Under the pieces are notes generated by a model, which was not told the DNA's origin, did not search any database, and saw only the letters and a program-made list of their open reading frames with translations. From contig CP118523.1 of the NCBI GenBank assembly GCA_029227815.1, positions 1,116,001 through 1,180,000 on the forward strand: a stretch of 64,000 nt of DNA. The letters are read 5' to 3'. The DNA is from Clostridiaceae bacterium M8S5. Its GTDB lineage: Bacteria > Bacillota > Clostridia > Tissierellales > MCWD3. The position numbers and the translations under genes were made by a program. This document shows positions 14,413-46,739 of the stretch, one piece after another. Each line of letters starts with the position of its first letter. Positions within the stretch are counted from its first letter, which is position 1.

Positions 14413-14640
14413 ATGGAAGATTTAATAATAGAAATAGCATCTAGTCAGGGTATCTGGACAGTTTTAACAGTTTTTTTGTTTTTCTATATTTTTAAGAATC
14501 AAGAAAAAAGAGACCAAAAACAAGAAGAAAGAGAAAAAAAGTACCAAGAAATAATAGCAAATCTAACAGAAAAACTCAATACTGTATTAGATATAAAAGA
14601 AGATGTCAAAGAAATAAAGAAATTAGTACTTAAAAAATAG
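14413..14640 (+). CDS. BhlA/UviB-family holin-like protein
   Basis: A 75-residue protein with one N-terminal hydrophobic span (about 13-30, GIWTVLTVFLFFYIFKNQ) followed by a highly charged helix with a C-terminal KEDVKEIKKLV pattern, as in the BhlA and UviB bacteriocin holins. It would form membrane lesions to let lysin out and so release tail particles. GGGAGGTG lies 6 bases before the start. The lysin gene follows after 65 bases, and the tail cassette after that, so it is the lysis gene of the tailocin locus. Confidence 0.88.
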   Translation: MEDLIIEIASSQGIWTVLTVFLFFYIFKNQEKRDQKQEEREKKYQEIIANLTEKLNTVLDIKEDVKEIKKLVLKK

Positions 14641-14705
14641 GAAATTAGTCTATTAACAAAAATATAATAATAAAATTCAATATAAAGAATAATTGGAGGG
14701 AAGCT

Positions 14706-16289
14706 ATGAATAATATAAATCCTGCCAAGATAAGCTTATTTGACGAAAATATAAAGAAAATTAATACTAGTGCTAAAATATTAGATGAAAAAGTAAATGA
14801 AGATGGAGTAACAATAAAAAATGTATATGAGATAGAACATCGTATTACAAAAGTTGATGAATACAACTATTATAAAATAAAATTTAGAAAAAGTGGTAGA
14901 GCAAATTTTTATATAAAAACAAATAAAAACAATAGACCAAGTATATATCTATTTGATCGAGATGGATTAAAACTAGTAGATGTATCAATTGGGAAAACAG
15001 ACAAACAGTTACATCATAGTGTAGATGTAATAGAGGGAGAGGAATATATAATAGGAATAACATGTAATACTATTGATAATAGCTGTGAGTACAAGTTTAG
15101 AGCAAAAGTATATGACAGTGTCAATGAATATAATATTATGGTTAAACAACTTGGACTAAAAAATAAAATTTACAGCGATTATATCTTTACTCAATATGGG
15201 CATAGAACATTGAAAAAGAACAGGAGAGGAACAGATGTAGTGCATCTGAAAAGATTATTGATAAAATTAGGATATACAAATGATACTATAGGTGTTTTTA
15301 ATGATAAAACACAGCAAGAGGTTAAAAATTTTCAACGTGAAAATCATCTAAAAGTCGATGGTTTAGTAGGACCAAACACAAGAAAGACTATCGGATTTAA
15401 AATAAATGAAAAAAGAGATGTTTTGTCAGGACGAAAAACAAAATTTACAGTAGAGATTGTAAACTGCTACCTATTAAATAAGTATAAAATAAATCTTTAT
15501 GATGAGAAGGGAGAGTACATAGTTTCATCGGATGAAAATAGTCAAGTAGATATAAAACTAAGTAAAGAGACTGACAAAACATTAAAGCTACAAATAATAG
15601 ATAGTATAAACTCATCTACTTCTAATCCAAATAAATGGCAATATGATGGGTTTTGTTTAGATAAAATTATAGAAAACCAGAATTGGAGTAGCACAAAAAA
15701 GCATGCTTATCCTATTATACCTAGATATATTAACAAGGCAGATTCGAGATTAGGAGGGGTATATGATATAATAATAGATCAATTTAATGTTGAGATGAAT
15801 GAACGATACTTGCAAAATAATAATAAGTCATATTGTAATATATACGTTTGGGATGTTACTAAAGCTATGTCTGCTGAAATACCTCATTGGATATATAGAT
15901 CAAATGATAGTATATACAAATACAACACACAAATTAGTTATAGTGAAAATGCGAAAATAGCTCACGAGCTAAGTGCTAATAGTGTATACAAGTGGATGAA
16001 AAAACACCACAAAGAAATAGGATATAAAAGAGTCAACGCACTGAATGCACAGCAATCAGCAAATAAAGGGAATCCAACTATAACTATGTGGTATAGCAAA
16101 TTTGGAGGCTCTGGGCATATGCAAATAGTAAGACCACTTCCTTATAATGAAAGTTATAACCCATCAAAAGGCGTATATATATCACAAGCAGGTAGCAAAA
16201 ATTATAGAGCTATATACTTACGAAATGAGTATTCAAAGAAATATCAAAATGAATTAATTTATTATACACACAATAACGAGGATGTCTAG
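14706..16289 (+). CDS. Peptidoglycan hydrolase with PG-binding domain and Cys/His catalytic region
   Basis: The 527-residue protein has an N-terminal beta-rich domain (1-150, like bacterial pre-peptidase or sugar-binding modules), a PG_binding_1 domain at about 170-235 (GTDVVHLKRLLIKLGY, then DGLVGPNTRKTIG), a second beta domain, and a C-terminal catalytic region (about 355-505). There SYCNIYVWDVTKAMSAEIPHW supplies the Cys and GSGHMQIVRP the His, an arrangement like CHAP or related papain-type wall hydrolases. No signal peptide, so it needs the holin just upstream. TTGGAGGGAAG precedes the ATG. Amidase or endopeptidase specificity cannot be decided. Confidence 0.78.
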   Translation: MNNINPAKISLFDENIKKINTSAKILDEKVNEDGVTIKNVYEIEHRITKVDEYNYYKIKFRKSGRANFYIKTNKNNRPSIYLFDRDGLKLVDVSIGKTDKQLHHSVDVIEGEEYIIGITCNTIDNSCEYKFRAKVYDSVNEYNIMVKQLGLKNKIYSDYIFTQYGHRTLKKNRRGTDVVHLKRLLIKLGYTNDTIGVFNDKTQQEVKNFQRENHLKVDGLVGPNTRKTIGFKINEKRDVLSGRKTKFTVEIVNCYLLNKYKINLYDEKGEYIVSSDENSQVDIKLSKETDKTLKLQIIDSINSSTSNPNKWQYDGFCLDKIIENQNWSSTKKHAYPIIPRYINKADSRLGGVYDIIIDQFNVEMNERYLQNNNKSYCNIYVWDVTKAMSAEIPHWIYRSNDSIYKYNTQISYSENAKIAHELSANSVYKWMKKHHKEIGYKRVNALNAQQSANKGNPTITMWYSKFGGSGHMQIVRPLPYNESYNPSKGVYISQAGSKNYRAIYLRNEYSKKYQNELIYYTHNNEDV

Positions 16290-16306
16290 TTTGGCATCCT
16301 CGCTTT
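16277..16306 (+). terminator. Hairpin overlapping the lysin stop
   Basis: CGAGGATG (16277-16284) pairs with CATCCTCG (16295-16302), followed by CTTTAT. The T run is short. Confidence 0.6.
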
Positions 16307-16354
16307 ATCGTATAATGCTAATAATTAAAAAAGATGAAAAAAATTCAAATTAGT

Positions 16355-16391
16355 GGTTGTTTTTTTTCTTTCTCATCGACATATATATATG
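16355..16391 (+). promoter_or_regulatory. Unusual promoter of tail cassette 1
   Basis: GGTTG (16355-16359), 16 bases, TCGACATATATATATG (16376-16391), then GAAGGA. The identical layout, with the same 21-base offset and only one base changed in the second box, lies before cassette 2 at 30959-30995. The boxes do not look like a sigma-A promoter, so a special or phage-type sigma factor may read it; PBSX late genes similarly depend on a dedicated sigma-like factor. Confidence 0.55.
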
Positions 16392-16454
16392 GAAGGAGCT
16401 TTACAACTTACAATTTGAAATAAAGCTTACCGAAAGGAGGAAGGGGTGATGTGA

Positions 16455-18013: not shown

Positions 18014-18457
18014 ATGAATAAATTGTCAGGAAATAGAGTGATAAACGGTACATGGGGAGAAATATGGTTAGAAGGTGAAAAAATAAGTGAATTAACAGGA
18101 TTAGATGCTAAAATCACACTTAAAAAAGAAGACGTAAGTATGTGTGGAGTATTAGCAAAAGAATCTAAGATAACAGGCTGGGAAGGAAAAGGAACACTAA
18201 AGCTACACAAAGTGAATTCAAGAATGGCTCAGTTATTAGGAGATAATATAAAGCAAGGAAAAGACGTAAGATTTACAATAGTTGCAAAGCTTGCGGACCC
18301 TGATACAATAGGAAATCAGTCAGAGAGAGTTGCACTAAAAGGAGTAAGCTTTGATGACCTTACAGTAATGAACTTTGAGATGAAGGCACTAGGAAAAGTA
18401 GAGTGTCCATTTACATTTACAGACTATGATTTTATGGATTTAATAAAACCAGAATAG
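18014..18457 (+). CDS. xkdM: Tail tube protein, cassette 1
   Basis: A 147-residue XkdM-family protein (GTWGEIWLEGEKISELTGLDAKI, ending FTDYDFMDLIKPE) that stacks as hexamers to form the tail tube inside the sheath. GGAGGTAG lies before the ATG. The copy at 32632 differs in a single residue near the C-terminus (Lys to Ser), with few silent DNA changes, which is far less divergence than the neighbouring genes show. Confidence 0.92.
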   Translation: MNKLSGNRVINGTWGEIWLEGEKISELTGLDAKITLKKEDVSMCGVLAKESKITGWEGKGTLKLHKVNSRMAQLLGDNIKQGKDVRFTIVAKLADPDTIGNQSERVALKGVSFDDLTVMNFEMKALGKVECPFTFTDYDFMDLIKPE

Positions 18458-18468: not shown

Positions 18469-18864
18469 ATGAGTACTTTAGATTTATTATTACAATTAGA
18501 CCAAAGCAAGCTTAAAAAGCCTAGCAAAGAAGTAGAAATGAAAAGATTATCAGAGCTATTGGGAGAAAAAATGATATTTAAGGTGGAAGCTTTAACACCT
18601 GAGAAAATGGATGAAATCCAGACAATGAGCACAGACGAAGAAAAAGAGACAATGAACATGGGTGAATTACAGCTATTAGCAGTAATGGAAGGTGTAAAAG
18701 AGCCAAATTTTAAGTCAAAAGAACTAATGGATAAGTTCGGAGTATATACCCCTAAAGATTTAATTAGAAAGATATTACTTCCAGGTGAGATAATCACTCT
18801 TTATGGAATAGTAGGCGATTTAAGTGGATTTGATGGTGGAGCAATAGAAGAAGTAAAAAACTAA
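18469..18864 (+). CDS. xkdN: Tail assembly chaperone, zero-frame product, cassette 1
   Basis: The 131-residue XkdN-like chaperone (MSTLDLLLQLDQSKLKKPSKE, LSELLGEKMIFKVEALTPEKM) coats the tape measure during tail assembly. It ends at codon EEVKN with the heptamer A AAA AAC immediately before the stop (18855-18861), the canonical site for -1 slippage. A conserved -1 frame continues to 19046, so two products are expected, as with gpG and gpGT of lambda. Near-identical to the gene at 33087. Confidence 0.9.
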   Translation: MSTLDLLLQLDQSKLKKPSKEVEMKRLSELLGEKMIFKVEALTPEKMDEIQTMSTDEEKETMNMGELQLLAVMEGVKEPNFKSKELMDKFGVYTPKDLIRKILLPGEIITLYGIVGDLSGFDGGAIEEVKN

Positions 18865-19049: not shown

Positions 19050-19088
19050 AAAAAAGACTATCTCAATGCGATTGAGAAAGTCTTTTTT
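19050..19088 (+). terminator. Attenuator-like hairpin before the tape measure gene, cassette 1
   Basis: AAAAAAGACT (19050-19059) pairs with AGTCTTTTTT (19079-19088), with CTCAAT/ATTGAG inside. It is a complete intrinsic terminator within the operon, between abundant structural genes and the tape measure. Cassette 2 has an unrelated hairpin in the same place. Confidence 0.7.
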
Positions 19089-19125
19089 CATTCTGAAAAT
19101 TATAGTAAAGGTGGTGAATAGACAA

Positions 19126-20622
19126 ATGCCAATTGCACCGATGCTACCAGGATATAACAATTATGTACTTGGAGAAAATGCTATAAAAATTACTAAAGCC
19201 ATTATAAAAGCTACAAAAAATAGAGCTACAAAGGTAAATAAGGATTTTAATGATTTAGTAGAAAGAATAGATGAGCAGAACAAAGGTAAAATAGAAAGAC
19301 CAAGAAATAAAGCTGATGATTTAGTAGATATGTATACAAAAGTTGATAGATCAAAAAAAGTACCCAACATATTATTAAATACAGGACCTAGAAAAATTTT
19401 CAATGTAATTAAAAAATCAAAAATTTTAGCTAATAATGTGACTCCAAAAATTGCTAAATTATTAGAAAGTGGTATTAATCTAGCAGGCAAAATCAAAGGC
19501 AAGGATTTTTCAAAAAGCGCAGAGTGGGCTAGAAAAGCTTTAGAAATGAGGCATAAAAAAATTGCGGGGGTATCGATAAAATCTAAGACATGGAAAAAGT
19601 TTACTAAATTCAATAATCGAACAGATGCGGGACTAGCTAAATGGTATAAAAATTTAAGAAAGAAAATACCTAGCAAATGGAAAAACATAAAAAAAGCTCC
19701 TAAAACATTATTTGGAAAAGTTTTTAAAGGGAACAAATTTCGCAGAGGTTTCGGTAAGGCAAAGAATTTCCTAGGTAAGTTTAAAAAGTCTAATCTAATT
19801 AAAAAATTACCTAAAAAAGGTATGTTATCAAAGCTTGGCAAAGGATTTGCAAAAGCATTTTCTCCACTAGGGTTCGCTGCTAATGCTTATACAGCAGTAA
19901 ATGATAAAAGTAACTTCAAAAGAGCTCTAGCAGGTTTAGATATTGTGGGAGACTTAACAGCTGGTGTACCAGTAGTAGGAACAGCAATATCAGGTATAAC
20001 ATCTGCACTTAACTTTGGAGGTGCATTAGCATACGATTTATTAGGTACTACTGAATTTGGCAAAAAGATAAACAAAGTTTTAGACCATGGAGCAGGTTTT
20101 GTAGTAAAACCAGTTGCCAAAGCTTTTAGTTGGGCAGGCAAAGGAATAAAAAGTATGTTTAAAGGAGCTAATAGTATAAAGAATTCATTAAGCAAGAAAT
20201 TCTCTAGTGGAGTAGGGAAGGGAATAGATTATGCAAAACAGAAAATCGGCAAAGTGAAAGGTTTCTTCTCGGGTTTATTCTCTAGAAAAAAGAAATTAAA
20301 ACCTGTGAAACCTAGCTTTATTAATAAAATAATTAATATGACAAAATCACCATACAATAAAAACTGGATATTAAAAAACACAGCAAAAGGTAAAAAAAGA
20401 ATAATACCAAAAATATCTACTGAAAATATATCGGACTATATCAGTAGTATGAACGTTAGAGTTAAATCTCAGGCTAAAACAAATAACATCAGTAACCCAA
20501 GTCATTCAAGTAGCTCTAATAACAACAACTTCAATGTACACATTTCAGGCAATAATTTGTCAGTAAAAGAAATAGCAAACGAACTAGTATCAGAAATCAA
20601 AACTAGTATGGCAAATATATAA
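19126..20622 (+). CDS. Small tape measure protein, cassette 1
   Basis: The ATG at 19126 follows AAAGGTGGTG, so I start there (498 residues) rather than at the longer open frame. The protein is very rich in Lys, has a basic first half and a Gly/Ala/Val-rich hydrophobic part near 260-330 (LAGLDIVGDLTAGVPVVGTAISGI), and a C-terminal strand segment (NFNVHISGNNLSVKEIANELV) typical of tape measures. It sits in the XkdO position and would set tail length; at 0.15 nm per residue the tail would be short. The counterpart at 33735 is divergent overall but keeps the hydrophobic core (FKRALAGLD) and the C-terminal segment. Confidence 0.75.
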   Translation: MPIAPMLPGYNNYVLGENAIKITKAIIKATKNRATKVNKDFNDLVERIDEQNKGKIERPRNKADDLVDMYTKVDRSKKVPNILLNTGPRKIFNVIKKSKILANNVTPKIAKLLESGINLAGKIKGKDFSKSAEWARKALEMRHKKIAGVSIKSKTWKKFTKFNNRTDAGLAKWYKNLRKKIPSKWKNIKKAPKTLFGKVFKGNKFRRGFGKAKNFLGKFKKSNLIKKLPKKGMLSKLGKGFAKAFSPLGFAANAYTAVNDKSNFKRALAGLDIVGDLTAGVPVVGTAISGITSALNFGGALAYDLLGTTEFGKKINKVLDHGAGFVVKPVAKAFSWAGKGIKSMFKGANSIKNSLSKKFSSGVGKGIDYAKQKIGKVKGFFSGLFSRKKKLKPVKPSFINKIINMTKSPYNKNWILKNTAKGKKRIIPKISTENISDYISSMNVRVKSQAKTNNISNPSHSSSSNNNNFNVHISGNNLSVKEIANELVSEIKTSMANI

Positions 20623-20636: not shown

Positions 20637-21056
20637 ATGAACATATACTTATCAGTTAATAATAGAGAACAAGTGATTAAATTGCCAGTACTCCCTAACG
20701 AATTTATGGTTAATACAGGTATGAAAAATGAAAGCTACGACACTATAAGGCAAGGTGAAATAAAATTAATAGGACTTGAGAATCTTAAAACTATAAAAAT
20801 TCAATCCTTCTTTCCAAGTAAAAGATACAACTTTCTAAGGGATAATAAATATAAAGGTTGGAGATACGTAGAGATGATAGAAGGTTGGAAGAGTAGGAGA
20901 GTTCCTATCAGGCTAATAATCACCAATACTCCAATAAATATGCCATGCACAATAGAAGGGTTTGAATATGGTATAAAAGATGGTACTAACGATATATATT
21001 ACACATTGACATTAAGTGAATTTAAGTTTATCAAACTAAAGAAAAAGGGGGTATAG
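20637..21056 (+). CDS. XkdP-like baseplate/tail protein without LysM, cassette 1
   Basis: A 139-residue protein matching the N-terminal part of XkdP-type proteins (MNIYLSVNNREQVIKLPVLP, KTIKIQSFFPS, PINMPCTIEGFEYGI). PBSX XkdP has a LysM wall-binding domain after this; here it is missing, as in many clostridial tail loci. It lies between tape measure and hub genes and likely joins tube to baseplate. AGGGAGAGG precedes the ATG. The paralogue at 35370 is about 65 percent similar by eye. Confidence 0.75.
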   Translation: MNIYLSVNNREQVIKLPVLPNEFMVNTGMKNESYDTIRQGEIKLIGLENLKTIKIQSFFPSKRYNFLRDNKYKGWRYVEMIEGWKSRRVPIRLIITNTPINMPCTIEGFEYGIKDGTNDIYYTLTLSEFKFIKLKKKGV

Positions 21057-21060: not shown

Positions 21061-22023
21061 ATGCATCAATTACACTGTATAACAGATGATGTGCAAACAG
21101 ATATGACACCTCTAGTTGGAAATGTGAGTTGGAGAAGCAATATCAATGAACTTGGTGATCAACTTAATTTTGATATAGCATTTAATGATGATAGATACTT
21201 TCCAGTGATACCTGTAAAAGTCGGGAGTGTAATCATACTAAAAAATGAACAGGAAATATTTAGAGGTATAGTAGTATCTAGCCAGAGAAGTGGTAGAGGT
21301 GCAATAAGCTATACTTGTTTTGATTATGCGTTTTATCTTAATAAAAGTAAAGAGATATATCAATTTAATAAAACACCTGCTAAAGATGCAATACAAAAAA
21401 TACTCAGTGACTTTAAGATACCTATAGGGAAAATTGCTCCAATCAGTACCGTGATAGATAAGATATACAACAATATGGCTATAAGTGAGATATTAAAAGA
21501 TGTTATAAAAATATCTGAAAAAGAAAAAGGCATCAAATATAGAATGGAAATGAGAGAAGGCAAAATATATATTGAAAATCAAGAAGAGCTAATGATAAAA
21601 GCATCATTTAGATTAGCTAGTAATCTCATGAGTCATGCAGCAATAACTTCTATATCAAATCCTAGTAGAAAAATATCAATGGAAGATATGAAAAACAGTA
21701 TAAAAGTAATAGTAAACAAAAAAACTGTTGAGGTAAAAAATCAGAAGTTAATAGACGAATATGGACTATTGCAAGAGGTACTAACAGAAGATAGCGATAA
21801 AGCAAAGGCAAAAAATATTGCAGAAAAGATGCTAAAAGATATAGGGAAATTAATGGAGGAAAACTCTATAGAAATGATAGGAGATGACAGTGCAAGATCA
21901 GGAAGATTGATAGAAATAGATGAGCCTATCACAGGGATGAAAGGCAAATATTTGATAAAAGACGTAAATCATACACTTAGAAATGGTATTCATCGAATGC
22001 AGGTAGGATTAGGGGTGAAATAA
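21061..22023 (+). CDS. xkdQ: XkdQ-like baseplate hub protein, cassette 1
   Basis: The 320-residue protein starts HQLHCITDDVQTDMTPLVGNVSW and contains the beta-barrel hub fold of gp27/XkdQ proteins (FRGIVVSSQRSGRGAISYTCFDYAFYLNKSKE), ending MKGKYLIKDVNHTLRNGIHRMQVGLGVK. It would form the trimeric hub that links the six-fold tube to the three-fold spike. Stop and next start overlap (TAATGG). AAAGGGGGTATAGTATC precedes the ATG. Confidence 0.85.
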   Translation: MHQLHCITDDVQTDMTPLVGNVSWRSNINELGDQLNFDIAFNDDRYFPVIPVKVGSVIILKNEQEIFRGIVVSSQRSGRGAISYTCFDYAFYLNKSKEIYQFNKTPAKDAIQKILSDFKIPIGKIAPISTVIDKIYNNMAISEILKDVIKISEKEKGIKYRMEMREGKIYIENQEELMIKASFRLASNLMSHAAITSISNPSRKISMEDMKNSIKVIVNKKTVEVKNQKLIDEYGLLQEVLTEDSDKAKAKNIAEKMLKDIGKLMEENSIEMIGDDSARSGRLIEIDEPITGMKGKYLIKDVNHTLRNGIHRMQVGLGVK

Positions 22024-22385
22024 TGGAAGGAATAAGCGAGTTTGCAAAACTATTTAAAGAAAGAGACAATAAACCTTATCTAGGTCCACAGTTAGGCACT
22101 GTACAAAGCAAATTTCCCGATATTAAGATATCATTAGGAGATAATGTATTATTGACTAAAAAGAACTTGTATTTTTCATCTCATATAACCAAACATTTTG
22201 AAAGAGAATTCGAAATAGAAGCTAAAGAAGTAAAATTCGAGCAAGAAATGCCTAGCATCACTAAATATCAAAGCAAAGGCAAAATAAAATACAAAGATGT
22301 ATTGAAAAAAGGAGATAAAGTCATACTCATACCTACAACAGATGAGCAAAAATACTATGTAATAGATAAGGTGGTGAAAGTATGA
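22023..22385 (+). CDS. XkdR-like DUF2577 protein, cassette 1
   Basis: A 120-residue protein starting MEGISEFAKLFKERDNKPYLGPQLG, the DUF2577/XkdR pattern. Proteins in this place are thought to contribute to the spike or central baseplate. Unlike its three paralogues in cassette 2, it lacks the central insert with the H-x-H motif. It overlaps both neighbours by a few bases, so it is translationally coupled. Confidence 0.75.
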   Translation: MEGISEFAKLFKERDNKPYLGPQLGTVQSKFPDIKISLGDNVLLTKKNLYFSSHITKHFEREFEIEAKEVKFEQEMPSITKYQSKGKIKYKDVLKKGDKVILIPTTDEQKYYVIDKVVKV

Positions 22386-25476: not shown

Positions 25477-25824
25477 ATGATAATAGATTCATTAAAATTG
25501 AAGCCCTTAAAAGGGCTTCAGTATAAAGATATAAAAAGGATAGTACAAGGTTTTAAGACAACCACACCAGACCATGCAAACTATTTCAATCAAGCACTAC
25601 AGCTCTTAATAGACAATGACGTGACACTAGACAATCTTACAAACGAAGCAGTAAGAGAGTTGAAGTTAAACCAGATGGATATAGCAATAGAGCTAGAGAC
25701 ATTAAAAGGAGCATTGTTAACAGGAGTAGATTCAAATATCATGGTTCAGACATTTGAAGAGCTAGAGGGTGATTTGAGATTTGGTGTTTATAATAAGCCA
25801 GAAAAAACACTGGATATTATTTAG
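25477..25824 (+). CDS. Small helical tail-locus protein of unknown function
   Basis: The 115-residue product (LKLKPLKGLQYKDIKRIVQGF, then NYFNQALQLLIDNDVTLDNL) looks helical and acidic. It is not recognised. It lies between two fibre-type genes with an AGTGGAGGTG ribosome site, so it may be a fibre assembly chaperone or adaptor. Codons 9-14 contain a perfect hairpin in the mRNA (25500-25519). Confidence 0.5.
   Translation: MIIDSLKLKPLKGLQYKDIKRIVQGFKTTTPDHANYFNQALQLLIDNDVTLDNLTNEAVRELKLNQMDIAIELETLKGALLTGVDSNIMVQTFEELEGDLRFGVYNKPEKTLDII
25500..25519 (+). promoter_or_regulatory. Strong hairpin inside the start of a coding region
   Basis: GAAGCCCTT (25500-25508) pairs perfectly with AAGGGCTTC (25511-25519) across a two-base gap, 24 bases after the start codon of the 115-residue gene. 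It could slow translation or act as an mRNA processing site; it could also be codon chance. Confidence 0.4.
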
Positions 25825-33482: not shown

Positions 33483-33652
33483 TAAATACAGATGGATTAA
33501 CACAGATGATGTATTACTATTGGAATACAAAGGGTATAAGACCATCTGTACTTTACAACATGCCAAAAGGAGAGTTGTTAGTGGTAACAGCTTTTTATGA
33601 ACAAGAACTAAAAGACAAAGAAGAACTTTTAAAAGCAAGAGGGATAGAATAA
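33479..33652 (+). CDS. -1 frameshift extension of the chaperone, cassette 2
   Basis: In the -1 frame after 33473-33479 the sequence reads LINTDGLTQMMYYYWNTKGI and continues to KDKEELLKARGIE with TAA at 33650-33652. The first about 45 residues match the cassette 1 extension, then the tails differ. Conservation of a frame without its own start supports programmed frameshifting. Confidence 0.85.
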   Translation, partial: LINTDGLTQMMYYYWNTKGIRPSVLYNMPKGELLVVTAFYEQELKDKEELLKARGIE

Positions 33653-33709: not shown

Positions 33710-33734
33710 AAAATTGTATAAAGGTGGTGAAAAT

Positions 33735-35357
33735 ATGAGTAGTGAAGTAGAAAAAAAATTAAAAGCTCGTAGTGATACTATAAATGAGCAAAGCATAGCT
33801 GGTAAGAATAGTATAGCAGAACAGCCAAGATATTTTAAAGATGGAGTTGATGACTTTGTAAATTTATATACTCAAAATGCTAGATTTAAGTATTTTTTTA
33901 GAGAAGTTCACAGTGCTCCTAAATCTGTTTACAACATGAATGCTGAAGTATATACACATAAGATAAATAATCAAATTGAAAAAAGAAGAAAATTACTTTC
34001 AGAGAAGGCAAGAATAGATAATAAAATAAAAAACGCTAATAGTTATGCTGAAGAAAAATTATTAAAGAAAGATTTAGAAAATATACAGCAAAAAATAAGA
34101 AGTAATAAATCGATGACTAGAGAACTTTCAAGTAATAAGGTGAAAGGGAAACCTGTTAATAGTTTCTATAAAAAAATGATGAACAGAGCACGCAAATTTA
34201 ATAGCAAGTTGTGGAAAAATTATAACATATATAAAGCATGGGCTATAACAGGAGTCGAAAATTTTGTAGATAAATCAATAAAAAAAATACCTTATATTGG
34301 TGAAAAAATACTGTCAGGAGGAAAGTATCTAGGCAAGAACTTACAAAAGATATTACCCGGCGTAGATATAGGAGTGAATAGTTATGTACTTGCAACTGAT
34401 CCAAGCAATTTTAAAAGGTCGTTAGCGGGATTAGATATGCTAGGATATGCGGGATTTTTAGCAGGTCCAGAAGTAGGGGTACCAGTTAAAGCTATAACAG
34501 GATATTTAAACTTTTTCGGAGCATTAGGTTACGATATCGCAAGTTCTTTTGATTCAACAAGGTTTATTGCAGAATGGTTAGATGATAATTCACCAGATAT
34601 TAAAAGTGTTACGGATAAATACATTACACCTGAAAATATTATAGGGATATCTGCAGCCGCTAATATGGCTATGCCGGGTGCTTTGGATGCAGGAATATGG
34701 ATAGCTAAGCAGATGGAGAATAACGGATTAGATTCTCAAGCTATGAAAAAGAATATAGCGAAAACTGATAGTATACCTGAAATAATAAATCAAAGCAAAA
34801 CAACACCAAAATTAAAAACGCCAAAAAAAACAACAATAAAAAATAGTAAAGCTACGATAAATCCATCAAATATAACTGAATTCAATGGCAAGTATTATTA
34901 TCATGAAAAACCACTACCTAAGATTGATTTATCAAATATATCTCCAAAACAAGATTCGATTGATTTTAGGGGAATAAATATACCAAAATTACCACCAAAA
35001 GAATTAAAAGAAATACCTATAAAGCAACCTATACCAAGATTAAAAAGGAGATACGATAGGTTAGAGCCTTTAAAAATGACACCTATAAAGCTAAATAATA
35101 ATTTGAAACCATATATTATGCCGTATGATAGCTCAAACATCAATATCTATAATAAAAAAGATGGCAAAGGAAGACCTGGATTTTTAAAGAGGTTGTTTGG
35201 TACATCAAACAAAAACAAATCTACAAACAACACAAGTAATAATAACAGCAATAGAAACAGTATCATCTTAAACGTGAATGGTGCTAATTTATCTACTGAT
35301 CAAATAGTAAATGAAATCGTCACCAATTTAAATATTGCAATGGGGAATACTGCGTAA
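33735..35357 (+). CDS. Small tape measure protein, cassette 2
   Basis: Start chosen at ATG 33735 after AAAGGTGGTG (540 residues). It begins with a coiled-coil part (MSSEVEKKLKARSDTINEQ, then IEKRRKLLSEKARIDNKI), has a hydrophobic segment near 230-270 (FKRSLAGLDMLGYAGFLAGP), a Pro/Lys-rich part at about 360-470, and the tape measure-type end SIILNVNGANLSTDQIVNEIV. It is about 40 residues longer than the cassette 1 protein, so its tail may be slightly longer. Overall similarity to that protein is limited to the core and the end. Confidence 0.75.
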   Translation: MSSEVEKKLKARSDTINEQSIAGKNSIAEQPRYFKDGVDDFVNLYTQNARFKYFFREVHSAPKSVYNMNAEVYTHKINNQIEKRRKLLSEKARIDNKIKNANSYAEEKLLKKDLENIQQKIRSNKSMTRELSSNKVKGKPVNSFYKKMMNRARKFNSKLWKNYNIYKAWAITGVENFVDKSIKKIPYIGEKILSGGKYLGKNLQKILPGVDIGVNSYVLATDPSNFKRSLAGLDMLGYAGFLAGPEVGVPVKAITGYLNFFGALGYDIASSFDSTRFIAEWLDDNSPDIKSVTDKYITPENIIGISAAANMAMPGALDAGIWIAKQMENNGLDSQAMKKNIAKTDSIPEIINQSKTTPKLKTPKKTTIKNSKATINPSNITEFNGKYYYHEKPLPKIDLSNISPKQDSIDFRGINIPKLPPKELKEIPIKQPIPRLKRRYDRLEPLKMTPIKLNNNLKPYIMPYDSSNINIYNKKDGKGRPGFLKRLFGTSNKNKSTNNTSNNNSNRNSIILNVNGANLSTDQIVNEIVTNLNIAMGNTA

Positions 35358-35369: not shown

Positions 35370-35789
35370 ATGGATATATTTTTGTCAATTAACAACAGAG
35401 AAGAAGTAATAAAATTGCCAGTTCTTCCAACTGAGTTCAAAACTAATTCATCAATGAAAAACCAAAGCTATGAAACTATCTCACAGGGAGAAATAAAGCT
35501 AATTGGAACAGAGTCGTTAAAAACTATTTCCATACAATCATTCTTTCCTAATAAAGAGTATGAATTTGCAAGAGATGACAAATATAAAGGTTGGGAATAT
35601 GTAGAGTTAATTGAAGATTGGAAGAAAAAAAGGATACCAATAAGACTGACTATAACAAATTCACTAATTAATATGCCATGTACAATAGAAAGTTTTGAGT
35701 ATGGATTGCAAGATGGCAGTGGAGATATATACTATACACTTTCTTTAAGTGAGTTTAAGTATATAGACCTCGATCAAAAGGAGGTATAG
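35370..35789 (+). CDS. XkdP-like baseplate/tail protein, cassette 2
   Basis: A 139-residue paralogue of the gene at 20637, same length, with FLSINNREEVIKLPVLPTEF and INMPCTIESFEYGL. It lacks a LysM domain too. AAAGGAGGGGG precedes the ATG. Confidence 0.75.
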   Translation: MDIFLSINNREEVIKLPVLPTEFKTNSSMKNQSYETISQGEIKLIGTESLKTISIQSFFPNKEYEFARDDKYKGWEYVELIEDWKKKRIPIRLTITNSLINMPCTIESFEYGLQDGSGDIYYTLSLSEFKYIDLDQKEV

Positions 35790-35792: not shown

Positions 35793-36761
35793 ATGCATCA
35801 ATTATATTGTATAACAGATAATGTCCAGACTAATATTACGCCTTTAGTAGGAAATATAAGTTGGAGTAGTGATGTAAGTCAATTAGGAGATAGACTAAAT
35901 TTTAGTATAGCATTTAATGATAGCAGATTTTTCCCAGAGATTCCAGTGGAGGTTGGAAGTAGTATAGTTCTAAAAAACAAGGATGAAATATTTAGAGGAA
36001 TAGTAGTGACAAGTTCACAAAATGGTAGAGGTTCAATAAGCTATACTTGTCTAGACTACGCATTTTATCTTAACAAATCCAAAGAAATATATCAGTTTAA
36101 CAAAATATCAGCAAAAAGTGCACTAGAAACGATATTTGGTGATTTTGGTATTTCTATAGGGAGAGTAGCATCAATAGATACAGTGATTAATAAGATATAC
36201 AACAACAAAGTTATAGCTCAAATAATAAAAGATATACTAACAACAGCAGAAAATGAGAGTGGCATAAAGTACACAATGGAGATGAGACAAAATAAAATAT
36301 ATATAGAAAAGCAAGAAGACTTAGTAATAAAGGCTACATTTAAGCTGTCAAAAGATGCACAAGAGATGGATGTATCTAAATCAATATCAAATCCCGTAAG
36401 AAATATCACTATAGAGAATATGAAGAACAGTGTCAAGATACTAATAGATGAAAACAAACAAATTGAGAAGAAAGATTCAAAGCTAATAGGAAAATATGGA
36501 CTACTACAAGAAGTCATAGTAGCAAAAAATGAAGAAGATTCAAAAGCAAAGAATATAGCCGAAAAAGTACTCAAAGACCTAGGAAAAGTCATGGAAGATA
36601 ATACACTTTCAATGATAGGTAATGATGCTGTAAGAGCTGGTAGGTTAATGGAGATACAAGAGCCAGTAACAGGTATGAGTGGCAAATATCTAATAAAAAA
36701 CGTCAAACATACACTGAAAAACGGTATACATCTAATGCAACTAGGATTAGGGGTGAAGTAA
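35793..36761 (+). CDS. xkdQ: XkdQ-like baseplate hub protein, cassette 2
   Basis: A 322-residue paralogue of the gene at 21061 (HQLYCITDNVQTNITPLVGN, IFRGIVVTSSQNGRGSISYT, MSGKYLIKNVKHTLKNGIH). It should form the baseplate hub of the second particle. It is followed with no gap by the first of three spike-type genes. Confidence 0.85.
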   Translation: MHQLYCITDNVQTNITPLVGNISWSSDVSQLGDRLNFSIAFNDSRFFPEIPVEVGSSIVLKNKDEIFRGIVVTSSQNGRGSISYTCLDYAFYLNKSKEIYQFNKISAKSALETIFGDFGISIGRVASIDTVINKIYNNKVIAQIIKDILTTAENESGIKYTMEMRQNKIYIEKQEDLVIKATFKLSKDAQEMDVSKSISNPVRNITIENMKNSVKILIDENKQIEKKDSKLIGKYGLLQEVIVAKNEEDSKAKNIAEKVLKDLGKVMEDNTLSMIGNDAVRAGRLMEIQEPVTGMSGKYLIKNVKHTLKNGIHLMQLGLGVK

Positions 36762-41820: not shown

Positions 41821-44800
41821 ATGCATAGGACAATTAATTATAATTTGAAACAACCAGACTATGATGATTATATAGATATAAATGTGTTAAATGGTAACAT
41901 GAGTATAATAGATGCAAAACTAAAGGAAGTTGCTGATAAAGCTGGAGTAAATGATCAATTAATAAAAACAAATACTAATACAGTAGCTATAAATACATTA
42001 AAGATAAAGAACAATTTTGATAAATCGGAAGAATTAACAGGAAAAATCTCTCAAAATACGAGTTTAATTACAGAAAGAGAAAAAGAAATAAGAAAAGAAA
42101 TCACAACAAATGCAATTGCGATAGGAACAAAAGTAAGTACAGATCAGTTAACAACAAAGGTAGGAGAATTAACAAGTAAGATAGATACTAAAGCAAGTAT
42201 AACAGCACTAAATGAGAAAGCAAGCAAAATGGAGTTGAGTACAGAAGTAGAAAACATAACAGGAAAAGTAACAGCAAATACAGATTTGATATCAGCAAGA
42301 GAAGAAGAAATAAGAAAAGATATTACAGCAAATGAGGTAGCAATAGGAACAAAAGTAAACACAAGTGATTTAACAACAAAAGTAGGAGAATTAACAGACA
42401 AGATAGATGCAAAAGCAAGTAAAACAGAGCTAGCAACGAAAGTAAGTAAGACGGATTATGAAAAAGAGAAAAAAGAACTAGAAAATGATATCACAGCAAA
42501 TACAACAGAAATAGGAACAAAAGCAAGTACGAGTCAGCTAACAAGCAAAGTACAAGAATTAACAGGTAAAATAAATGCCAAGGCAAGTATAACAGAGTTA
42601 AATAAAAAAGCTAGCCAAACATATGTAGATGGAGAAGTAGAAGACTTAGCAGGAAAGATAAAAACAAAGGCAAGTACAAGTCAACTAACAACAAAAGTAC
42701 AAGAGTTGACAGGTGAGATAGATGCAAAAGCAAGTAAAACAGAGCTAGCAACCAAGGTAAGTAAGACAGATTATGAAAAAGAGAAAAAAGAGATAAAGGA
42801 TGACATCACAGCAAATACAACAGCGATAGGAACAAAAGCAAGTACAAGTTTGCTAACAACAAAAGTTGGCGAATTGACGAGTAAGATAAATACAAAGGCA
42901 AGTAAAACAGATCTAGCAACAAAAGTAAGTAATACAGATTATGAAAAAGAGAAAAAAGAGATAGAAGATGACATCACAGCAAATACAACAGCGATAGGAA
43001 CAAAGGTAAGTACAAGTTTGCTAACAACAAAAGTACAAGAGTTGACTGGTAAGATAGATGCAAAAGCAAGTAAAACAGAGCTAGCAACCAAGGTAAGTAA
43101 GACAGATTACGAAAAAGAGAAAAAAGAGATAAAAGATGACATCACAGCAAATACAACAGTGTTAGGAACAAAGGCAAGTACAAGTTTGCTAACAACAAAA
43201 GTGGGGGAATTGACGAGTAAGATAAATACAAAGGCAAGTAAAACAGATCTAGCAACAAAAGTAAGCAAGACAGATTACGAAAAAGAGAAAAAAGAGCTAA
43301 AAGATGACATTACAGCTAATACAACAGCAATAGGAACAAAAGCAAGCACGAGTCAGCTAACAGGCAAAGTACAAGAATTAACAGGTAAAATAAATGCCAA
43401 GGCAAGTACAAGTCAATTAACAACAAAAGTACAAGAGTTGACAGGTGAGATAGATGCAAAAGCAAGTAAAACAGATCTAGCAACCAAGGTAAGTAAGACA
43501 GATTATGAAAAAGAGAAAAAAGAGATAAAAGATGACATCACAGTAAATACAACAGCGATAGGAACAAAAGCAAGTACAAGTTTGCTAACAACAAAAGTTG
43601 GCGAATTGACGAGTAAGATAAATACAAAGGCAAGTAAAACAGAGCTAGCAACCAAGGTAAGTAAGACAGATTACGAAAAAGAGAAAAAAGAGATAAAAGA
43701 TGACATCACAGCAAATACAACAGTGTTAGGAACAAAGGCAAGTACAAGTTTGCTAACAACAAAAGTGGGGGAATTGACGAGTAAGATAAATACAAAGGCA
43801 AGTAAAACAGATCTAGCAACAAAAGTAAGCAAGACAGATTACGAAAAAGAGAAAAAAGAGCTAAAAGATGACATTACAGCTAATACAACAGCAATAGGAA
43901 CAAAAGCAAGCACGAGTCAGCTAACAGGCAAAGTACAAGAATTAACAGGTAAAATAAATGCCAAGGCAAGTACAAGTCAATTAACAACAAAAGTACAAGA
44001 GTTGACAGGTGAGATAGATGCAAAAGCAAGTAAAACAGATCTAGCAACCAAGGTAAGTAAGACAGATTATGAAAAAGAGAAAAAAGAGATAAAAGATGAC
44101 ATCACAGTAAATACAACAGCGATAGGAACAAAAGCAAGTACAAGTTTGCTAACAACAAAAGTTGGCGAATTGACGAGTAAGATAAATACAAAGGCAAGTA
44201 AAACAGATCTAGCAACAAAAGTAAGTAAGACGGATTACGAAAAAGAGAAAAAAGAGATAAAAGATGACATCACAGCAAATACAACAGCGATAGGAACAAA
44301 GGCAAGTACAAGTTTGCTAACAACGAAAGTGGGGGAATTGACAAGTAAGATAAATACAAAGGCAAGTAAAACCGACCTAGCAACAAAAGTAAGTAAGACG
44401 GATTATGAAAAAGAGAAAAAAGAGATAAAAGATGACGTCACAGCAAATACAACAGCAATAGGAACAAAAGTAAGCACGAGTCAGCTAACAAGCAAAGTAC
44501 AAGAATTAACAGGTAAAATAAATGCCAAGGCAAGTACAAGTCAATTAACAACAAAAGTACAAGAGTTGACTGGTAAGATAGATGCAAAAGCAAGTAAAAC
44601 AGAGCTAGCAACAAAAGTAAGCAAGACAGATTACGAAAAAGAGAAAAAAGAGATAAAAGATGACATTACAGCTAATACAACAGCAATAGGAACAAAAGCA
44701 AGCACGAGTCAGCTAACAGGCAAAGTGCAAGAATTAACAGGTAAAATAAATGCCAAGGCAAGCATAACAGAGTTAAATAAAAAAGCTAGCCAAACATATG

Positions 44801-45846
44801 TAGATGGAGAAGTGGAAGACTTAGCAGGAAAGATAAAAACAAATGAAAATACTATAAAAACAAAGGCAAGTACAAGTCAATTAACAACAAAAGTACAAGA
44901 GTTGACAGGTGAGATAGATGCAAAAGCAAGTAAAACAGAGCTAGCAACAAAAGTAAGCAAGACAGATTACGAAAAAGAGAAAAAAGAGATAAAAGATGAC
45001 ATCACAGCCAATACAACAGCGATAGTAACAAAGGCAAGTACAAGTTTGCTAACAACAAAAGTACAAGAGTTGACAGGTAAGATAGATGCAAAAGCAAGTA
45101 AAACAGAGCTAGCAACAAAAGTAAGCAAGACAGATTACGAAAAAGAGAAAAAAGAGATAAAAGATGACATCACAGCCAATACAACAGCGATAGGAACAAA
45201 AGCAAGTACAAGTTTGCTAACAACAAAAGTGGGGGAATTGACAAGTAAGATAAATACAAAGGCAAGTAAAACCGACCTAGCAACAAAAGTAAGTAAGACG
45301 GATTACGAAAAAGAGAAAAAAGAGATAAAAGATGACATCACAGCCAATACAACAGCAATAGGAACAAAAGTAAGTGCAAGCATACTAACAACAAAAGTTA
45401 GGGAGTTAACAAACAAGATAAATACAAAAGCAAGTAAAACGGAGTTAGCAACAAAAGTTAGTAAAACAGATTTTACAAAAGCAAAAGAAGAGTTGAGAAA
45501 AGAAATAAGTTCAAATGAGGCAGCGATAGGTGTAAATGCAAGAGAACTAGCGTCAAAAGTAGAGGAATTAACAAGCCAGATAAGTGCAAATGAAGCAGCG
45601 ATAAGTAATGCAAGTGCACAACTTGTTACCCATAGCAATATGTTAAGTTCTTACGGTGGTAGATTAAAGACAAATGAAGAGGCTTTAGAAGAAAAAATAA
45701 CAGAATTAGCAGGTAAGACAACTACTATAAATAATACAAGTGAAACATTAAAAGAAAGAGTGGAAGTTTTGGCGGATGATATAAAGCAATCTAAAAATCT
45801 AACAAATTTAACTGCCGAAAAATACGTCTTATCAAATATATTTTAA
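41821..45846 (+). CDS. Giant repeat fibre (1341 residues), cassette 2
   Basis: After the attachment motif YNLKQPDYDDYIDINVLNGN shared with the Kelch fibre, nearly the whole protein consists of a repeat of 56 residues (eight heptads) around KASKTELATKVSKTDYEKEK, DDITANTTAIGTKASTS and LTTKVGELTSKINT, in about 18 partly shortened copies. Thr, Lys, Ala and Ser dominate and the spacing of Leu/Val/Ile suggests a long trimeric coiled coil. The last about 120 residues lose the repeat. Repeats are near-identical in DNA, so length can change by recombination. The tip is probably formed by the next genes. AGGAGGTG precedes the ATG. Confidence 0.8.
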   Translation: MHRTINYNLKQPDYDDYIDINVLNGNMSIIDAKLKEVADKAGVNDQLIKTNTNTVAINTLKIKNNFDKSEELTGKISQNTSLITEREKEIRKEITTNAIAIGTKVSTDQLTTKVGELTSKIDTKASITALNEKASKMELSTEVENITGKVTANTDLISAREEEIRKDITANEVAIGTKVNTSDLTTKVGELTDKIDAKASKTELATKVSKTDYEKEKKELENDITANTTEIGTKASTSQLTSKVQELTGKINAKASITELNKKASQTYVDGEVEDLAGKIKTKASTSQLTTKVQELTGEIDAKASKTELATKVSKTDYEKEKKEIKDDITANTTAIGTKASTSLLTTKVGELTSKINTKASKTDLATKVSNTDYEKEKKEIEDDITANTTAIGTKVSTSLLTTKVQELTGKIDAKASKTELATKVSKTDYEKEKKEIKDDITANTTVLGTKASTSLLTTKVGELTSKINTKASKTDLATKVSKTDYEKEKKELKDDITANTTAIGTKASTSQLTGKVQELTGKINAKASTSQLTTKVQELTGEIDAKASKTDLATKVSKTDYEKEKKEIKDDITVNTTAIGTKASTSLLTTKVGELTSKINTKASKTELATKVSKTDYEKEKKEIKDDITANTTVLGTKASTSLLTTKVGELTSKINTKASKTDLATKVSKTDYEKEKKELKDDITANTTAIGTKASTSQLTGKVQELTGKINAKASTSQLTTKVQELTGEIDAKASKTDLATKVSKTDYEKEKKEIKDDITVNTTAIGTKASTSLLTTKVGELTSKINTKASKTDLATKVSKTDYEKEKKEIKDDITANTTAIGTKASTSLLTTKVGELTSKINTKASKTDLATKVSKTDYEKEKKEIKDDVTANTTAIGTKVSTSQLTSKVQELTGKINAKASTSQLTTKVQELTGKIDAKASKTELATKVSKTDYEKEKKEIKDDITANTTAIGTKASTSQLTGKVQELTGKINAKASITELNKKASQTYVDGEVEDLAGKIKTNENTIKTKASTSQLTTKVQELTGEIDAKASKTELATKVSKTDYEKEKKEIKDDITANTTAIVTKASTSLLTTKVQELTGKIDAKASKTELATKVSKTDYEKEKKEIKDDITANTTAIGTKASTSLLTTKVGELTSKINTKASKTDLATKVSKTDYEKEKKEIKDDITANTTAIGTKVSASILTTKVRELTNKINTKASKTELATKVSKTDFTKAKEELRKEISSNEAAIGVNARELASKVEELTSQISANEAAISNASAQLVTHSNMLSSYGGRLKTNEEALEEKITELAGKTTTINNTSETLKERVEVLADDIKQSKNLTNLTAEKYVLSNIF
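43082..44209 (+). repeat. 564-bp tandem duplication inside the giant fibre gene
   Basis: The segment around 43141 (GACATCACAGCAAATACAAC then AGTGTTAGGAACAAAGGCAA) recurs 564 bases later at 43705 with the same rare variant TTVLG and the same following order of shortened repeats. Exact ends are approximate. The unit is 188 codons, not a multiple of 56, because it includes an extra 20-residue half repeat. It is best explained by a recent unequal crossover. Confidence 0.7.
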
Positions 45847-45857
45847 GGAGTGATTTT

Positions 45858-46265
45858 ATGGCAATGACAAGTAAATCATATACAGTCAAGAATCGATCAA
45901 TCTCAAATTTTACAATACTACAGGTAAGAGGAAAGGGAGTTTTAGAATCGTTAAGTATAATTTTGGAACAAAGTAATCTAGTTAGTCCTAGAGAGGGAGT
46001 AGCAGCTATTGGCACACCATATCCAAGTACTTTGAGATCTGGTACTATAATTATTGAAATAGATAATGCAGTGTTTTTTAGAGGTTCGGTTGCTGAACTT
46101 AGCAAGATTTTTTATGGAGAAAGTAATTTTGCGCCGAATTCATCAAGTAGTTACAAGGTAGGATGGCATAAAATGGGGAAAATATTTAATAGCAAGCTTT
46201 ACATTAGAATACAGGATAAAATGAACATTGACTATATGGGAATAAGTTATCTTTTGGAGGTGTAA
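45858..46265 (+). CDS. Fibre-associated protein of unknown family
   Basis: The 135-residue protein (MAMTSKSYTVKNRSISNFTI, VSPREGVAAIGTPYPSTLRS, YMGISYLLEV at the end) is predicted beta-rich with many aromatic and Ser residues near the C-terminus. It follows the giant fibre by 11 bases with AAGGAGTG. Since that fibre ends without a clear receptor-binding domain, this may be a separate tip protein or a fibre chaperone. Confidence 0.5.
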   Translation: MAMTSKSYTVKNRSISNFTILQVRGKGVLESLSIILEQSNLVSPREGVAAIGTPYPSTLRSGTIIIEIDNAVFFRGSVAELSKIFYGESNFAPNSSSSYKVGWHKMGKIFNSKLYIRIQDKMNIDYMGISYLLEV

Positions 46266-46266
46266 G

Positions 46267-46629
46267 ATGAACGAAAAAATATTAGTGGAAAATGGTATCG
46301 TTTATAAAAATGATAAAACAGAAGTATATGAAGTAAAAGAGTTTATTGATTATGAAAATAGTTTAAAATTTGATGTAATCATTAACAAAATCAGCGACAC
46401 AACTGTAGGCGTAAAAGGGACAATCTATAAGGAGAACTATGAAGGTAATATAGTTGAGATAAAGAATCCAGTGACTATTAAATTAAGTGGTTATTGTAAT
46501 AATACTATTTTAAGTCCTAATAATGGGATGGTAGATTTAGATATTGAACTACCTAATGATATTGAATCTATAAATGTAACGGAAACAAATGTAGAAAAAG
46601 TTTTTGGAACTAGGAGGGTTAATATATGA
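46267..46629 (+). CDS. Small beta-rich protein after the giant fibre
   Basis: A 120-residue protein (MNEKILVENGIVYKNDKTEV, then KFDVIINKISDTTVGVKGTI) with an alternating strand pattern. It starts one base after the previous gene ends, with TTGGAGGTG upstream, and its end overlaps the next start by 4 bases, so the three are coupled. No family recognised. Confidence 0.5.
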   Translation: MNEKILVENGIVYKNDKTEVYEVKEFIDYENSLKFDVIINKISDTTVGVKGTIYKENYEGNIVEIKNPVTIKLSGYCNNTILSPNNGMVDLDIELPNDIESINVTETNVEKVFGTRRVNI

Positions 46630-46739
46630 GTTTTGAAGAAAGAAGAGAATTGTTAATAAAGAAACTAAAAGAAAAAGAAGAAAAGAGAGAATTAATAATA
46701 GAAAAGAAAGGAAACAAAATTATAGTATCTAAAAAATAG
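46626..46739 (+). CDS. Small charged helical peptide (37 residues)
   Basis: MSFEERRELLIKKLKEKEEK then RELIIEKKGNKIIVSKK. The ATG overlaps the previous stop (ATATGAG) and GGAGGG lies 8 bases upstream. Half of the residues are Lys, Glu or Arg. It is the last gene of cassette 2. Confidence 0.55.
   Translation: MSFEERRELLIKKLKEKEEKRELIIEKKGNKIIVSKK

What the first reader, a model, noticed from the sequence alone, without database searches (positions are those of the whole stretch)
14413..46739. Dual headless-tail (tailocin) locus
Two full sets of sheath, tube, chaperone, tape measure, hub, spike and wedge genes with separate fibres stand in tandem with one holin and two wall hydrolases, and no capsid, portal, terminase or integrase gene. 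This suggests one strain that makes two R-type particles with different target ranges, or hybrid particles. Tail bacteriocins with one set are well known; tandem doubled sets, except the R/F arrangement of Pseudomonas, are uncommon.
Basis: partly seen in the sequence, partly recalled or inferred. Interest (0 to 1): 0.75.

Follow-up and report, generated by a model that had tools for sequence, protein, structure and literature searches.

The report
Twin headless-tail weapons, one shared switch
This anaerobic bacterium carries two complete sets of genes for needle-like, headless phage tails side by side, and both sets begin with a control sequence that also stands in front of its other tail-particle genes elsewhere in the genome, so one damage-triggered switch of phage origin probably fires the whole arsenal.

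Summary
Window 14413-46739 carries two intact sets of R-type (diffocin/PBSX-like) contractile-tail genes, a holin and two wall hydrolases, with no head, packaging or integrase gene in the window or 28 kb of flank. The sets are not simple copies. Tube, chaperone and the sheath C-terminal half are 90-99% identical, by recent gene conversion; tape measure, baseplate and fibres have diverged, and set 2 has three spike genes. Each set starts with a promoter-like motif, GGTTGT-N15-TC[G/A]RC-N-TATA. It occurs exactly ten times in the genome (about 0.004 expected): before both sets, a third headless contractile locus, a headless F-type locus, two orphan fibre genes, a wall hydrolase, and one unexplained epimerase. 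It recurs before tail genes in the sister species and is not enriched elsewhere in the order. Beside the F-type locus, in both species, lies a phage-type sigma-factor gene preceded by a sigma-A promoter with an exact LexA (SOS) box. Best reading: DNA damage induces the sigma factor, which co-expresses several tailocins. Binding, induction and killing are inferred. Tandem dual R-tailocins are already known in Pseudomonas; the sigma-type regulon is the new variant.

The parts
14413..14640 (+). holin, BhlA family (75 aa)
   Evidence: PF10960 E 2.4e-30
14706..16289 (+). wall hydrolase with peptidoglycan-binding domain (527 aa)
   Evidence: PF01471 E 1e-13, PHROG endolysins
16355..16397 (+). promoter-like motif of set 1, GGTTGT-N15-TCGACATATATATATGGAAGGA
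   Evidence: exact match, one of ten in the genome
16455..16877 (+). set 1 tail terminator
   Evidence: PF20765
16877..18001 (+). set 1 sheath; C-terminal half homogenised with set 2
   Evidence: PF17482; dS profile
18014..18457 (+). set 1 tube
   Evidence: PF09393 E 9e-48; 99.3% identical to set 2
18469..18864 (+). set 1 tail assembly chaperone (XkdN), slip site AAAAAAC at 18855
   Evidence: PF08890
18888..19046 (+). set 1 second chaperone frame (frameshift product, 52 aa ORF)
   Evidence: open in -1 frame from 18834
19066..20622 (+). set 1 tape measure (518 aa)
   Evidence: position and profile; 32% identical to set 2
20637..21056 (+). set 1 XkdP-type tube-tail protein
   Evidence: profile, synteny with diffocin CD1367
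21061..22023 (+). set 1 hub (320 aa, no hydrolase domain)
   Evidence: PF24032 over 22-317
22023..22385 (+). set 1 spike (DUF2577, 120 aa, no HxH tip)
   Evidence: PF10844
22382..22828 (+). set 1 sheath initiator
   Evidence: PF10934
22825..23877 (+). set 1 baseplate J (wedge)
   Evidence: PF04865
23870..25066 (+). set 1 Gp48-type wedge protein (398 aa)
   Evidence: PF10076
25073..25462 (+). set 1 tail-collar fibre N-terminal protein
   Evidence: PF12571 weak, phrog_1780 E 3e-10
25477..25824 (+). set 1 small fibre-region protein
   Evidence: position only
25841..28066 (+). set 1 fibre-like protein with Ig-like domains (741 aa)
   Evidence: PF25788, phrog_5287 minor tail protein
29846..30010 (+). 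small coiled-coil protein
   Evidence: position
30027..30122 (+). XkdX-like 31 aa ORF
   Evidence: phrog_1382 E 2e-11; XkdX name from own knowledge
30156..30764 (+). N-acetylmuramoyl-L-alanine amidase, end of set 1
   Evidence: PF01510 E 7e-22; amidase ends the single tail set in G001
30783..30826 (+). terminator-like hairpin between the sets
   Evidence: sequence read directly
30959..31001 (+). promoter-like motif of set 2, GGTTGT-N15-TCGGCATATATATATGAAAGGA
   Evidence: exact match
31052..31474 (+). set 2 tail terminator
   Evidence: PF20765
31474..32619 (+). set 2 sheath
   Evidence: PF17482; diffocin sheath CD1363 E 1e-71
32632..33075 (+). set 2 tube
   Evidence: tube profile E 1e-73
33087..33482 (+). 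set 2 chaperone, slip site AAAAAAC at 33473
33506..33652 (+). set 2 second chaperone frame
33714..35357 (+). set 2 tape measure (547 aa)
35370..35789 (+). set 2 XkdP-type tube-tail protein
35793..36761 (+). set 2 hub
   Evidence: PF24032
36762..37214 (+). set 2 spike A (tip HPHHH)
   Evidence: PF10844
37243..37704 (+). set 2 spike B (tip HKH)
   Evidence: PF10844
37711..38160 (+). set 2 spike C (tip HLH)
   Evidence: PF10844
38161..38604 (+). set 2 sheath initiator
   Evidence: PF10934
38625..39779 (+). set 2 baseplate J
   Evidence: PF04865
39772..40302 (+). set 2 Gp48-type wedge protein
   Evidence: PF10076
40313..41737 (+). set 2 fibre with kelch-like repeats; N-terminal 42 aa shared with next gene
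41821..45846 (+). set 2 long repeat fibre (1341 aa)
45858..46265 (+). set 2 fibre-associated protein
   Evidence: position
46267..46629 (+). set 2 fibre-associated protein
   Evidence: position
46627..46740 (+). 37 aa ORF at the end of set 2
   Evidence: sequence read directly

Best explanation
The window holds two tandem R-type (diffocin-like) tailocins that are expressed together. Shown from sequence: two complete headless contractile tails; near-identical trunk parts kept alike by recent gene conversion; different tape measures, baseplates and fibres; and one promoter-like motif before each set that also stands before every other tail locus found in the genome. Inferred: a phage-type sigma factor encoded beside the F-type tail locus is made when LexA is cleaved after DNA damage, recognises the motif (GGTTGT as -35, TCGACATA as -10) and switches on both R-type sets, a third contractile tailocin, an F-type tailocin, orphan fibres and a wall hydrolase at once. 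Holins and hydrolases lyse the cell. The two R-type particles differ in fibres and spike and so should hit different strains; hybrid trunks are possible because tube, chaperone and inner sheath are interchangeable.
For: Two full gene sets without head genes. Relationship to diffocin: sheath CD1363 E 1e-71, same gene order. Trunk homogenised: dS 0.07 (tube) and 0.19 (chaperone) against about 1.2 to saturation for terminator, tape measure and all baseplate genes, and about 1.1 between the tube and the sister species' tube. Motif: 10 exact matches in this genome with 0.004 expected, 5 exact plus 4 with one mismatch in the sister species, reversed-pattern control 0 in both at up to 1 mismatch, 0-2 in each of 247 other genomes of the order. 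Nine of the ten sites precede tail, fibre or hydrolase genes. Sigma protein: Sigma70 region 2 E 3e-11, PHROG sigma factors, PDB hits only sigma factors, SigW over both regions. Conserved beside the F-type locus in both species; close homologues only in the three genomes with the motif. Exact SOS box CGAACRNRYGTTCG after TAGAC[AT]-N17-TATAAT ahead of that sigma operon in both species, the only one in 264 kb read from this genome.
Against: No expression, binding, particle or killing data. The association rests on two sister species and one MAG. The holin and 527-aa hydrolase lie upstream of set 1's motif and need another promoter. A sigma-region-4-like 112-aa protein and its 105-aa neighbour beside the F-type locus are alternative regulators. 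One exact site precedes a sugar epimerase and some sites in G001 do not precede tail genes. The SOS-box consensus is from my own knowledge of B. subtilis. The AlphaFold model of the sigma protein is poor (mean pLDDT 60).
Confidence: 0.7

Rival explanations
1. One hybrid particle system: the two sets feed a common pool, so baseplates of either kind sit on mixed trunks, and set 2 serves mainly to add a second wedge, fibre and spike choice to one particle type.
For: Tube 99.3% and chaperone 97.7% identical, inner sheath homogenised. Relatives carry one trunk plus a spare J-Gp48 cassette: Geosporobacter, Anaerovirgula and Anaerosolibacter upstream, Marinisporobacter and the PL23a MAG downstream. 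Locus B of the same genome has one trunk and two J-Gp48-fibre cassettes.
Against: Each set keeps its own terminator, tape measure, hub and initiator, diverged together, which is not needed if one trunk serves both.
Confidence: 0.2
2. Same twin tailocins, but the shared motif is read by another factor (the 112-aa sigma-region-4-like protein with its 105-aa partner, or an activator acting with housekeeping sigma), not by the 204-aa sigma protein.
For: The 112-aa protein matches phrog_5767 sigma factor (E 1e-13) and is conserved beside the F-type locus in G000, G001 and the related full phage of G249.
Against: The 204-aa protein carries region 2 and a weaker region 4, has the SOS-box promoter, and follows the same distribution.
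Confidence: 0.25
3. Two decaying prophage remnants without function.
For: No head genes; 1.8 kb of noncoding repeats inside set 1; degenerate DNA after set 2.
Against: All tail genes intact in both sets, frameshift sites kept, promoter motif kept, single-set version intact in the sister species.
Confidence: 0.07
4. An effector-delivering extracellular contractile injection system rather than a bacteriocin.
For: Contractile tail without head.
Against: No AAA+ ATPase and no obvious toxin gene among the predicted genes; holin and hydrolases present; relatives are phage tails and diffocin.
Confidence: 0.03

Closest known systems
Diffocin (R-type bacteriocin of Clostridioides difficile, CD1363-CD1372)
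   Same: Same gene order sheath, tube, tube tail, hub, spike, initiator, Tri2 (J), Tri1 (Gp48); sheath E 1e-71 to CD1363; spike class with HxH tip in set 2; SOS-induced in C. difficile (PMC6088184)
   Different: Doubled; hubs of 320/322 aa lack the hydrolase part of the 581-aa CD1368 (PMC11329794); set 1 spike lacks HxH; set 2 has three spike genes; the literature read here does not describe a sigma-type regulon for diffocin
Dual R-tailocins of Pseudomonas protegens CHA0 and mutS-cinA clusters of pseudomonads
   Same: Two distinct R-type sets in one locus; both particles seen by TEM (PMC7815802); 1-4 particles per cluster (PMC8319346)
   Different: Gram-negative, Pseudomonas insertion hotspot, PrtR-type regulator; here the trunk is gene-converted and the promoter is shared with distant loci
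R/F pyocins with PrtN and the P-box (Pseudomonas aeruginosa)
   Same: One SOS-gated factor acting through a conserved box for tail bacteriocins (PMC8609362)
   Different: PrtN is an activator released by RecA-PrtR; here the candidate is a sigma factor behind a LexA box, and R, F, orphan-fibre and hydrolase loci are scattered over the chromosome
Listeria monocin with MpaR
   Same: A tail-bacteriocin locus whose regulator coordinates other phage elements of the genome under SOS (PMC6872733)
   Different: MpaR is an anti-repressor protease; no shared promoter of several tail loci
PBSX-type tails (XkdK, XkdM, XkdN, XkdP, XkdQ, XkdT)
   Same: Same protein families
   Different: PBSX keeps head genes (own knowledge); none here

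Membership tests
R-type tailocin (diffocin-like) | sheath, tube, chaperone, tape measure, hub, spike, initiator, wedge and fibre genes in order | tested here: met
R-type tailocin (diffocin-like) | no capsid, portal, terminase or integrase linked | tested here: met
   window ORFs; flanks by ORF inspection
R-type tailocin (diffocin-like) | lysis genes linked | tested here: met
   holin and two hydrolases
R-type tailocin (diffocin-like) | SOS-inducible | not testable with these tools
   only an indirect link: SOS box before the candidate sigma operon
R-type tailocin (diffocin-like) | particles kill related bacteria | not testable with these tools
   needs experiment
Diffocin in the strict sense | hub fused to a peptidoglycan hydrolase | tested here: not met
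   YQBQ domain covers 22-317 of 320 aa; no further domain
Diffocin in the strict sense | spike hairpin with HxH iron site | tested here: inconclusive
   present in the three set 2 spikes, absent in set 1
Complete prophage | packaging and head genes | tested here: not met
   none found
Extracellular contractile injection system (Afp/PVC type) | AAA+ ATPase and cargo genes in the cluster | tested here: not met
   none among Pfam hits
Sigma-factor-driven regulon | conserved two-block promoter motif with fixed spacing before functionally related genes | tested here: met
   spacing 15 in all sites; 10 exact against 0.004 expected
Sigma-factor-driven regulon | cognate sigma factor co-occurs with the motif | tested here: met
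   close homologues only in G000, G001 and G249 among 256 genomes; just three related genomes
Sigma-factor-driven regulon | sigma protein transcribes from the motif | not testable with these tools
   needs in vitro transcription

The most novel reading that the evidence does not exclude
A phage late-gene sigma factor and its promoter, gated by LexA, have been captured as the master switch of a bacterial arsenal: two tandem R-type tailocins, a third contractile tailocin with two wedge-fibre cassettes, an F-type tailocin made by loss of the head module of a siphophage, orphan fibre genes that share a docking end with the third tailocin, and a wall hydrolase.
Probability: 0.55. Interest if true: 0.78.

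Novelty: new variant of a known kind. Interest (0 to 1): 0.64.

Why it matters
If true, it shows how a bacterium can turn several phage remains into one coordinated weapon system by spreading a single phage promoter, so that lysis of one cell releases several particle types at once. It gives a testable case of co-opted phage transcription in Gram-positive bacteria, explains why lysis genes need not sit in every tail locus, and provides a DNA signature for finding all members of such an arsenal, including orphan fibres that could widen its range.

Tried and rejected
Sheath query in genome contigs: no relative confirmed; the tube query worked. Rfam search of the intergenic region: nothing convincing. 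Viral-contig searches for the sigma protein and F-type tube, and a motif scan of viral contigs: nothing. Phage search with the intergenic repeat: none. AlphaFold of the sigma protein: low confidence, not used. SOS boxes before sets 1 and 2 directly: none in the window. Origin of set 2 by simple tandem duplication: not supported, because the sister species' single set is nearer set 1 in hub and spike but nearer set 2 in J and Gp48. An assembly overlap joining the two G001 contig ends around its locus B: none found.
Full report
WHAT IS THERE. The window is bases 1116001-1180000 of a 4.68 Mb single-contig, low-G+C genome. Two sister genomes form its genus here; the named genomes with the closest tube genes are anaerobic clostridial relatives (Anaerophilus, Maledivibacter, Marinisporobacter, Geosporobacter and others). 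From 14413 to 46740 all genes lie on the plus strand and form two complete contractile-tail sets with no head gene. Set 1: holin, wall hydrolase, terminator, sheath, tube, chaperone, tape measure, XkdP, hub, spike, initiator, J, Gp48, three fibre-region proteins, then after 1.8 kb of noncoding repeats a small coil protein, an XkdX-like ORF and an amidase. A strong hairpin with a T-run follows. Set 2 repeats the order from the terminator on and ends with a kelch-like fibre, a 1341-aa repeat fibre and two or three small proteins. The rest of the window is ordinary: two-component system, ABC transporter, FMN-riboswitch-linked ECF transporter, helicase, PI-PLC-like protein, VanW, NRPS.

NOT A PLAIN DUPLICATION. 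Tube proteins are 99.3% and chaperones 97.7% identical, whereas hub, spike, initiator, J and Gp48 are 63, 52-59, 51, 49 and 30% identical. Synonymous distance is 0.07 in the tube, 0.19 in the chaperone, falls along the sheath from pS 0.59 to 0, and is about 1.2 or saturated elsewhere; the tube is not under unusual synonymous constraint, since its dS to the sister species is about 1.1. So a tract of roughly 17430-18950 has been overwritten recently between the sets. The likely reason is that trunk parts are interchangeable, while wedge, spike and fibre are kept different. Both chaperone genes carry the same AAAAAAC slip site, and so does the sister species.

SPIKES. Set 2 has three DUF2577 genes of 149-153 aa, each with a histidine pair in the insertion where diffocin's spike holds iron (His72, His74; PMC11329794); set 1 has one of 120 aa without it. 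A heterotrimeric spike is possible but untested. Both hubs are hub domain only; the hydrolase part of diffocin's hub is missing.

MODULAR WEDGES IN RELATIVES. Geosporobacter, Anaerovirgula and Anaerosolibacter carry an extra J-Gp48-fibre cassette upstream of a single trunk; Marinisporobacter and the PL23a MAG carry an extra J and Gp48 downstream. The sister species G001 has one set whose hub and spike resemble set 1 and whose J, Gp48 and fibre resemble set 2. Wedge plus fibre thus behaves as an exchangeable unit.

THE SHARED PROMOTER-LIKE MOTIF. The DNA before the two terminator genes is alike in one block: GGTTGT-N15-TCGRCATATATATATGRAAGGA. The 22-base core occurs nine times in the genome at up to three mismatches, against none for the reversed pattern. 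The two-block form GGTTGTWWWW-N11-TCRRCNTATA has ten exact matches here, none with one mismatch, and then background; a first-order model predicts 0.004. In 249 genomes of the order at up to one mismatch, this genome has 10 and its sister 9; the others have 0-2. Spacing is 15 in every site. The ten sites stand before: set 1; set 2; locus B (two in tandem, 1558233 and 1558303); the F-type locus (terminator at 1043564, fibre genes at 1036968); orphan fibre genes at 715792 and 2049198; a 551-aa peptidoglycan hydrolase at 2043634 (PG_binding_1, Peptidase_M74); and a sugar epimerase at 13563, which I cannot explain. All three sheath genes and all baseplate J genes detected in this genome lie in loci headed by the motif.

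THE OTHER LOCI. Locus B (1558584-1573248) is a headless contractile tail with one trunk and two J-Gp48-fibre cassettes, between a helicase gene and protease-like genes. The orphan fibres begin with the same docking sequence as B's second fibre (55% over 49 aa and related matches), so they probably equip that particle. The F-type locus (about 1029-1044 kb) has terminator, tube, chaperone, 1431-aa tape measure, distal tail proteins, fibres and holins but no head genes. Its tube is 64% identical to that of a complete phage in the PL23a MAG, which has terminase and portal genes between the same small regulator genes and the tail and carries the motif before its fibre genes. I infer that the F-type locus arose by loss of the head module and that the motif is that phage group's late promoter; in the MAG only one exact site is seen, so this last step is weak.

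THE CANDIDATE SWITCH. Beside the F-type locus in both species lies a 164-204-aa protein with Sigma70 region 2 (E 3e-11) and weaker region 4, matching only sigma factors in the PDB. Good homologues exist only in the two species and the PL23a MAG, the three genomes with the motif; hits elsewhere are weak. Upstream of its operon, both species have TAGAC[AT]-N17-TATAAT followed directly by CGAACACATGTTCG or CGAACACACGTTCG. This fits the Bacillus SOS consensus CGAACRNRYGTTCG (own knowledge); it is the only such box in 264 kb read from this genome, with 0.001 expected. A sigma-region-4-like 112-aa protein and a 105-aa neighbour are alternative or additional factors.

MODEL. DNA damage, LexA cleavage, sigma factor made, all tail loci transcribed together, particles assembled, lysis by the holins and hydrolases. 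Shown: genes, motif, distribution, SOS box. Inferred: sigma binding, SOS response, joint production, killing, different target ranges. My estimates: headless tail locus 0.95; co-regulation by the motif 0.85; SOS control 0.7; the 204-aa protein as reader of the motif 0.6.

KNOWN OR NEW. Tandem dual R-tailocins and SOS-gated shared control boxes are known in Pseudomonas (PMC7815802, PMC8319346, PMC8609362), and cross-talk between a tail bacteriocin and prophages in Listeria (PMC6872733). I found no description of a sigma-type promoter shared by R-type, F-type and orphan-fibre loci in the open papers searched; subscription papers were not searched. I therefore call it a new variant of a known kind.

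Noticed in passing
window 28180-29840: Noncoding, structured repeat family dispersed over the genome (55 matches, about ten of 350 bases or more); a consensus fold of 8 copies has 85 pairs, 21 with compensatory changes; no Rfam match. Weaker copies occur in the sister species.
   Followed up: partly
G000:C1:1558233-1573248 (L163): Third headless contractile tail locus with two tandem promoter motifs, one trunk and two J-Gp48-fibre cassettes.
   Followed up: partly
G000:C1:1028000-1047000 (L078, L119, L164): Headless F-type tail locus between nth and an integrase-like gene, with sigma-like genes; the homologous locus in the PL23a MAG (L159, L118) is a complete phage.
   Followed up: partly
L077 6338-6745 and L079 6104-7153: Orphan fibre genes with the tail promoter motif, sharing a docking N-terminus with locus B's second fibre.
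   Followed up: partly
window 36762-38160: Three consecutive DUF2577 spike genes with histidine tips; other sets examined have one. A heterotrimeric spike is conceivable.
   Followed up: partly
G000:C1:13563 (L081): Exact tail-promoter motif before a UDP-sugar epimerase-like gene; possible surface-polysaccharide link or chance.
   Followed up: no
window 41821-45846: 1341-aa fibre built of many near-identical coil repeats; likely to vary in length by recombination.
   Followed up: no
L049-L058 (Geosporobacter, Marinisporobacter, PL23a, Anaerovirgula, Anaerosolibacter): Single-trunk tail loci with a spare J-Gp48 wedge cassette, up- or downstream.
   Followed up: partly
window 51576-62279: Large NRPS gene (4 condensation, 3 adenylation domains); further NRPS-like genes follow beyond the window.
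   Followed up: no
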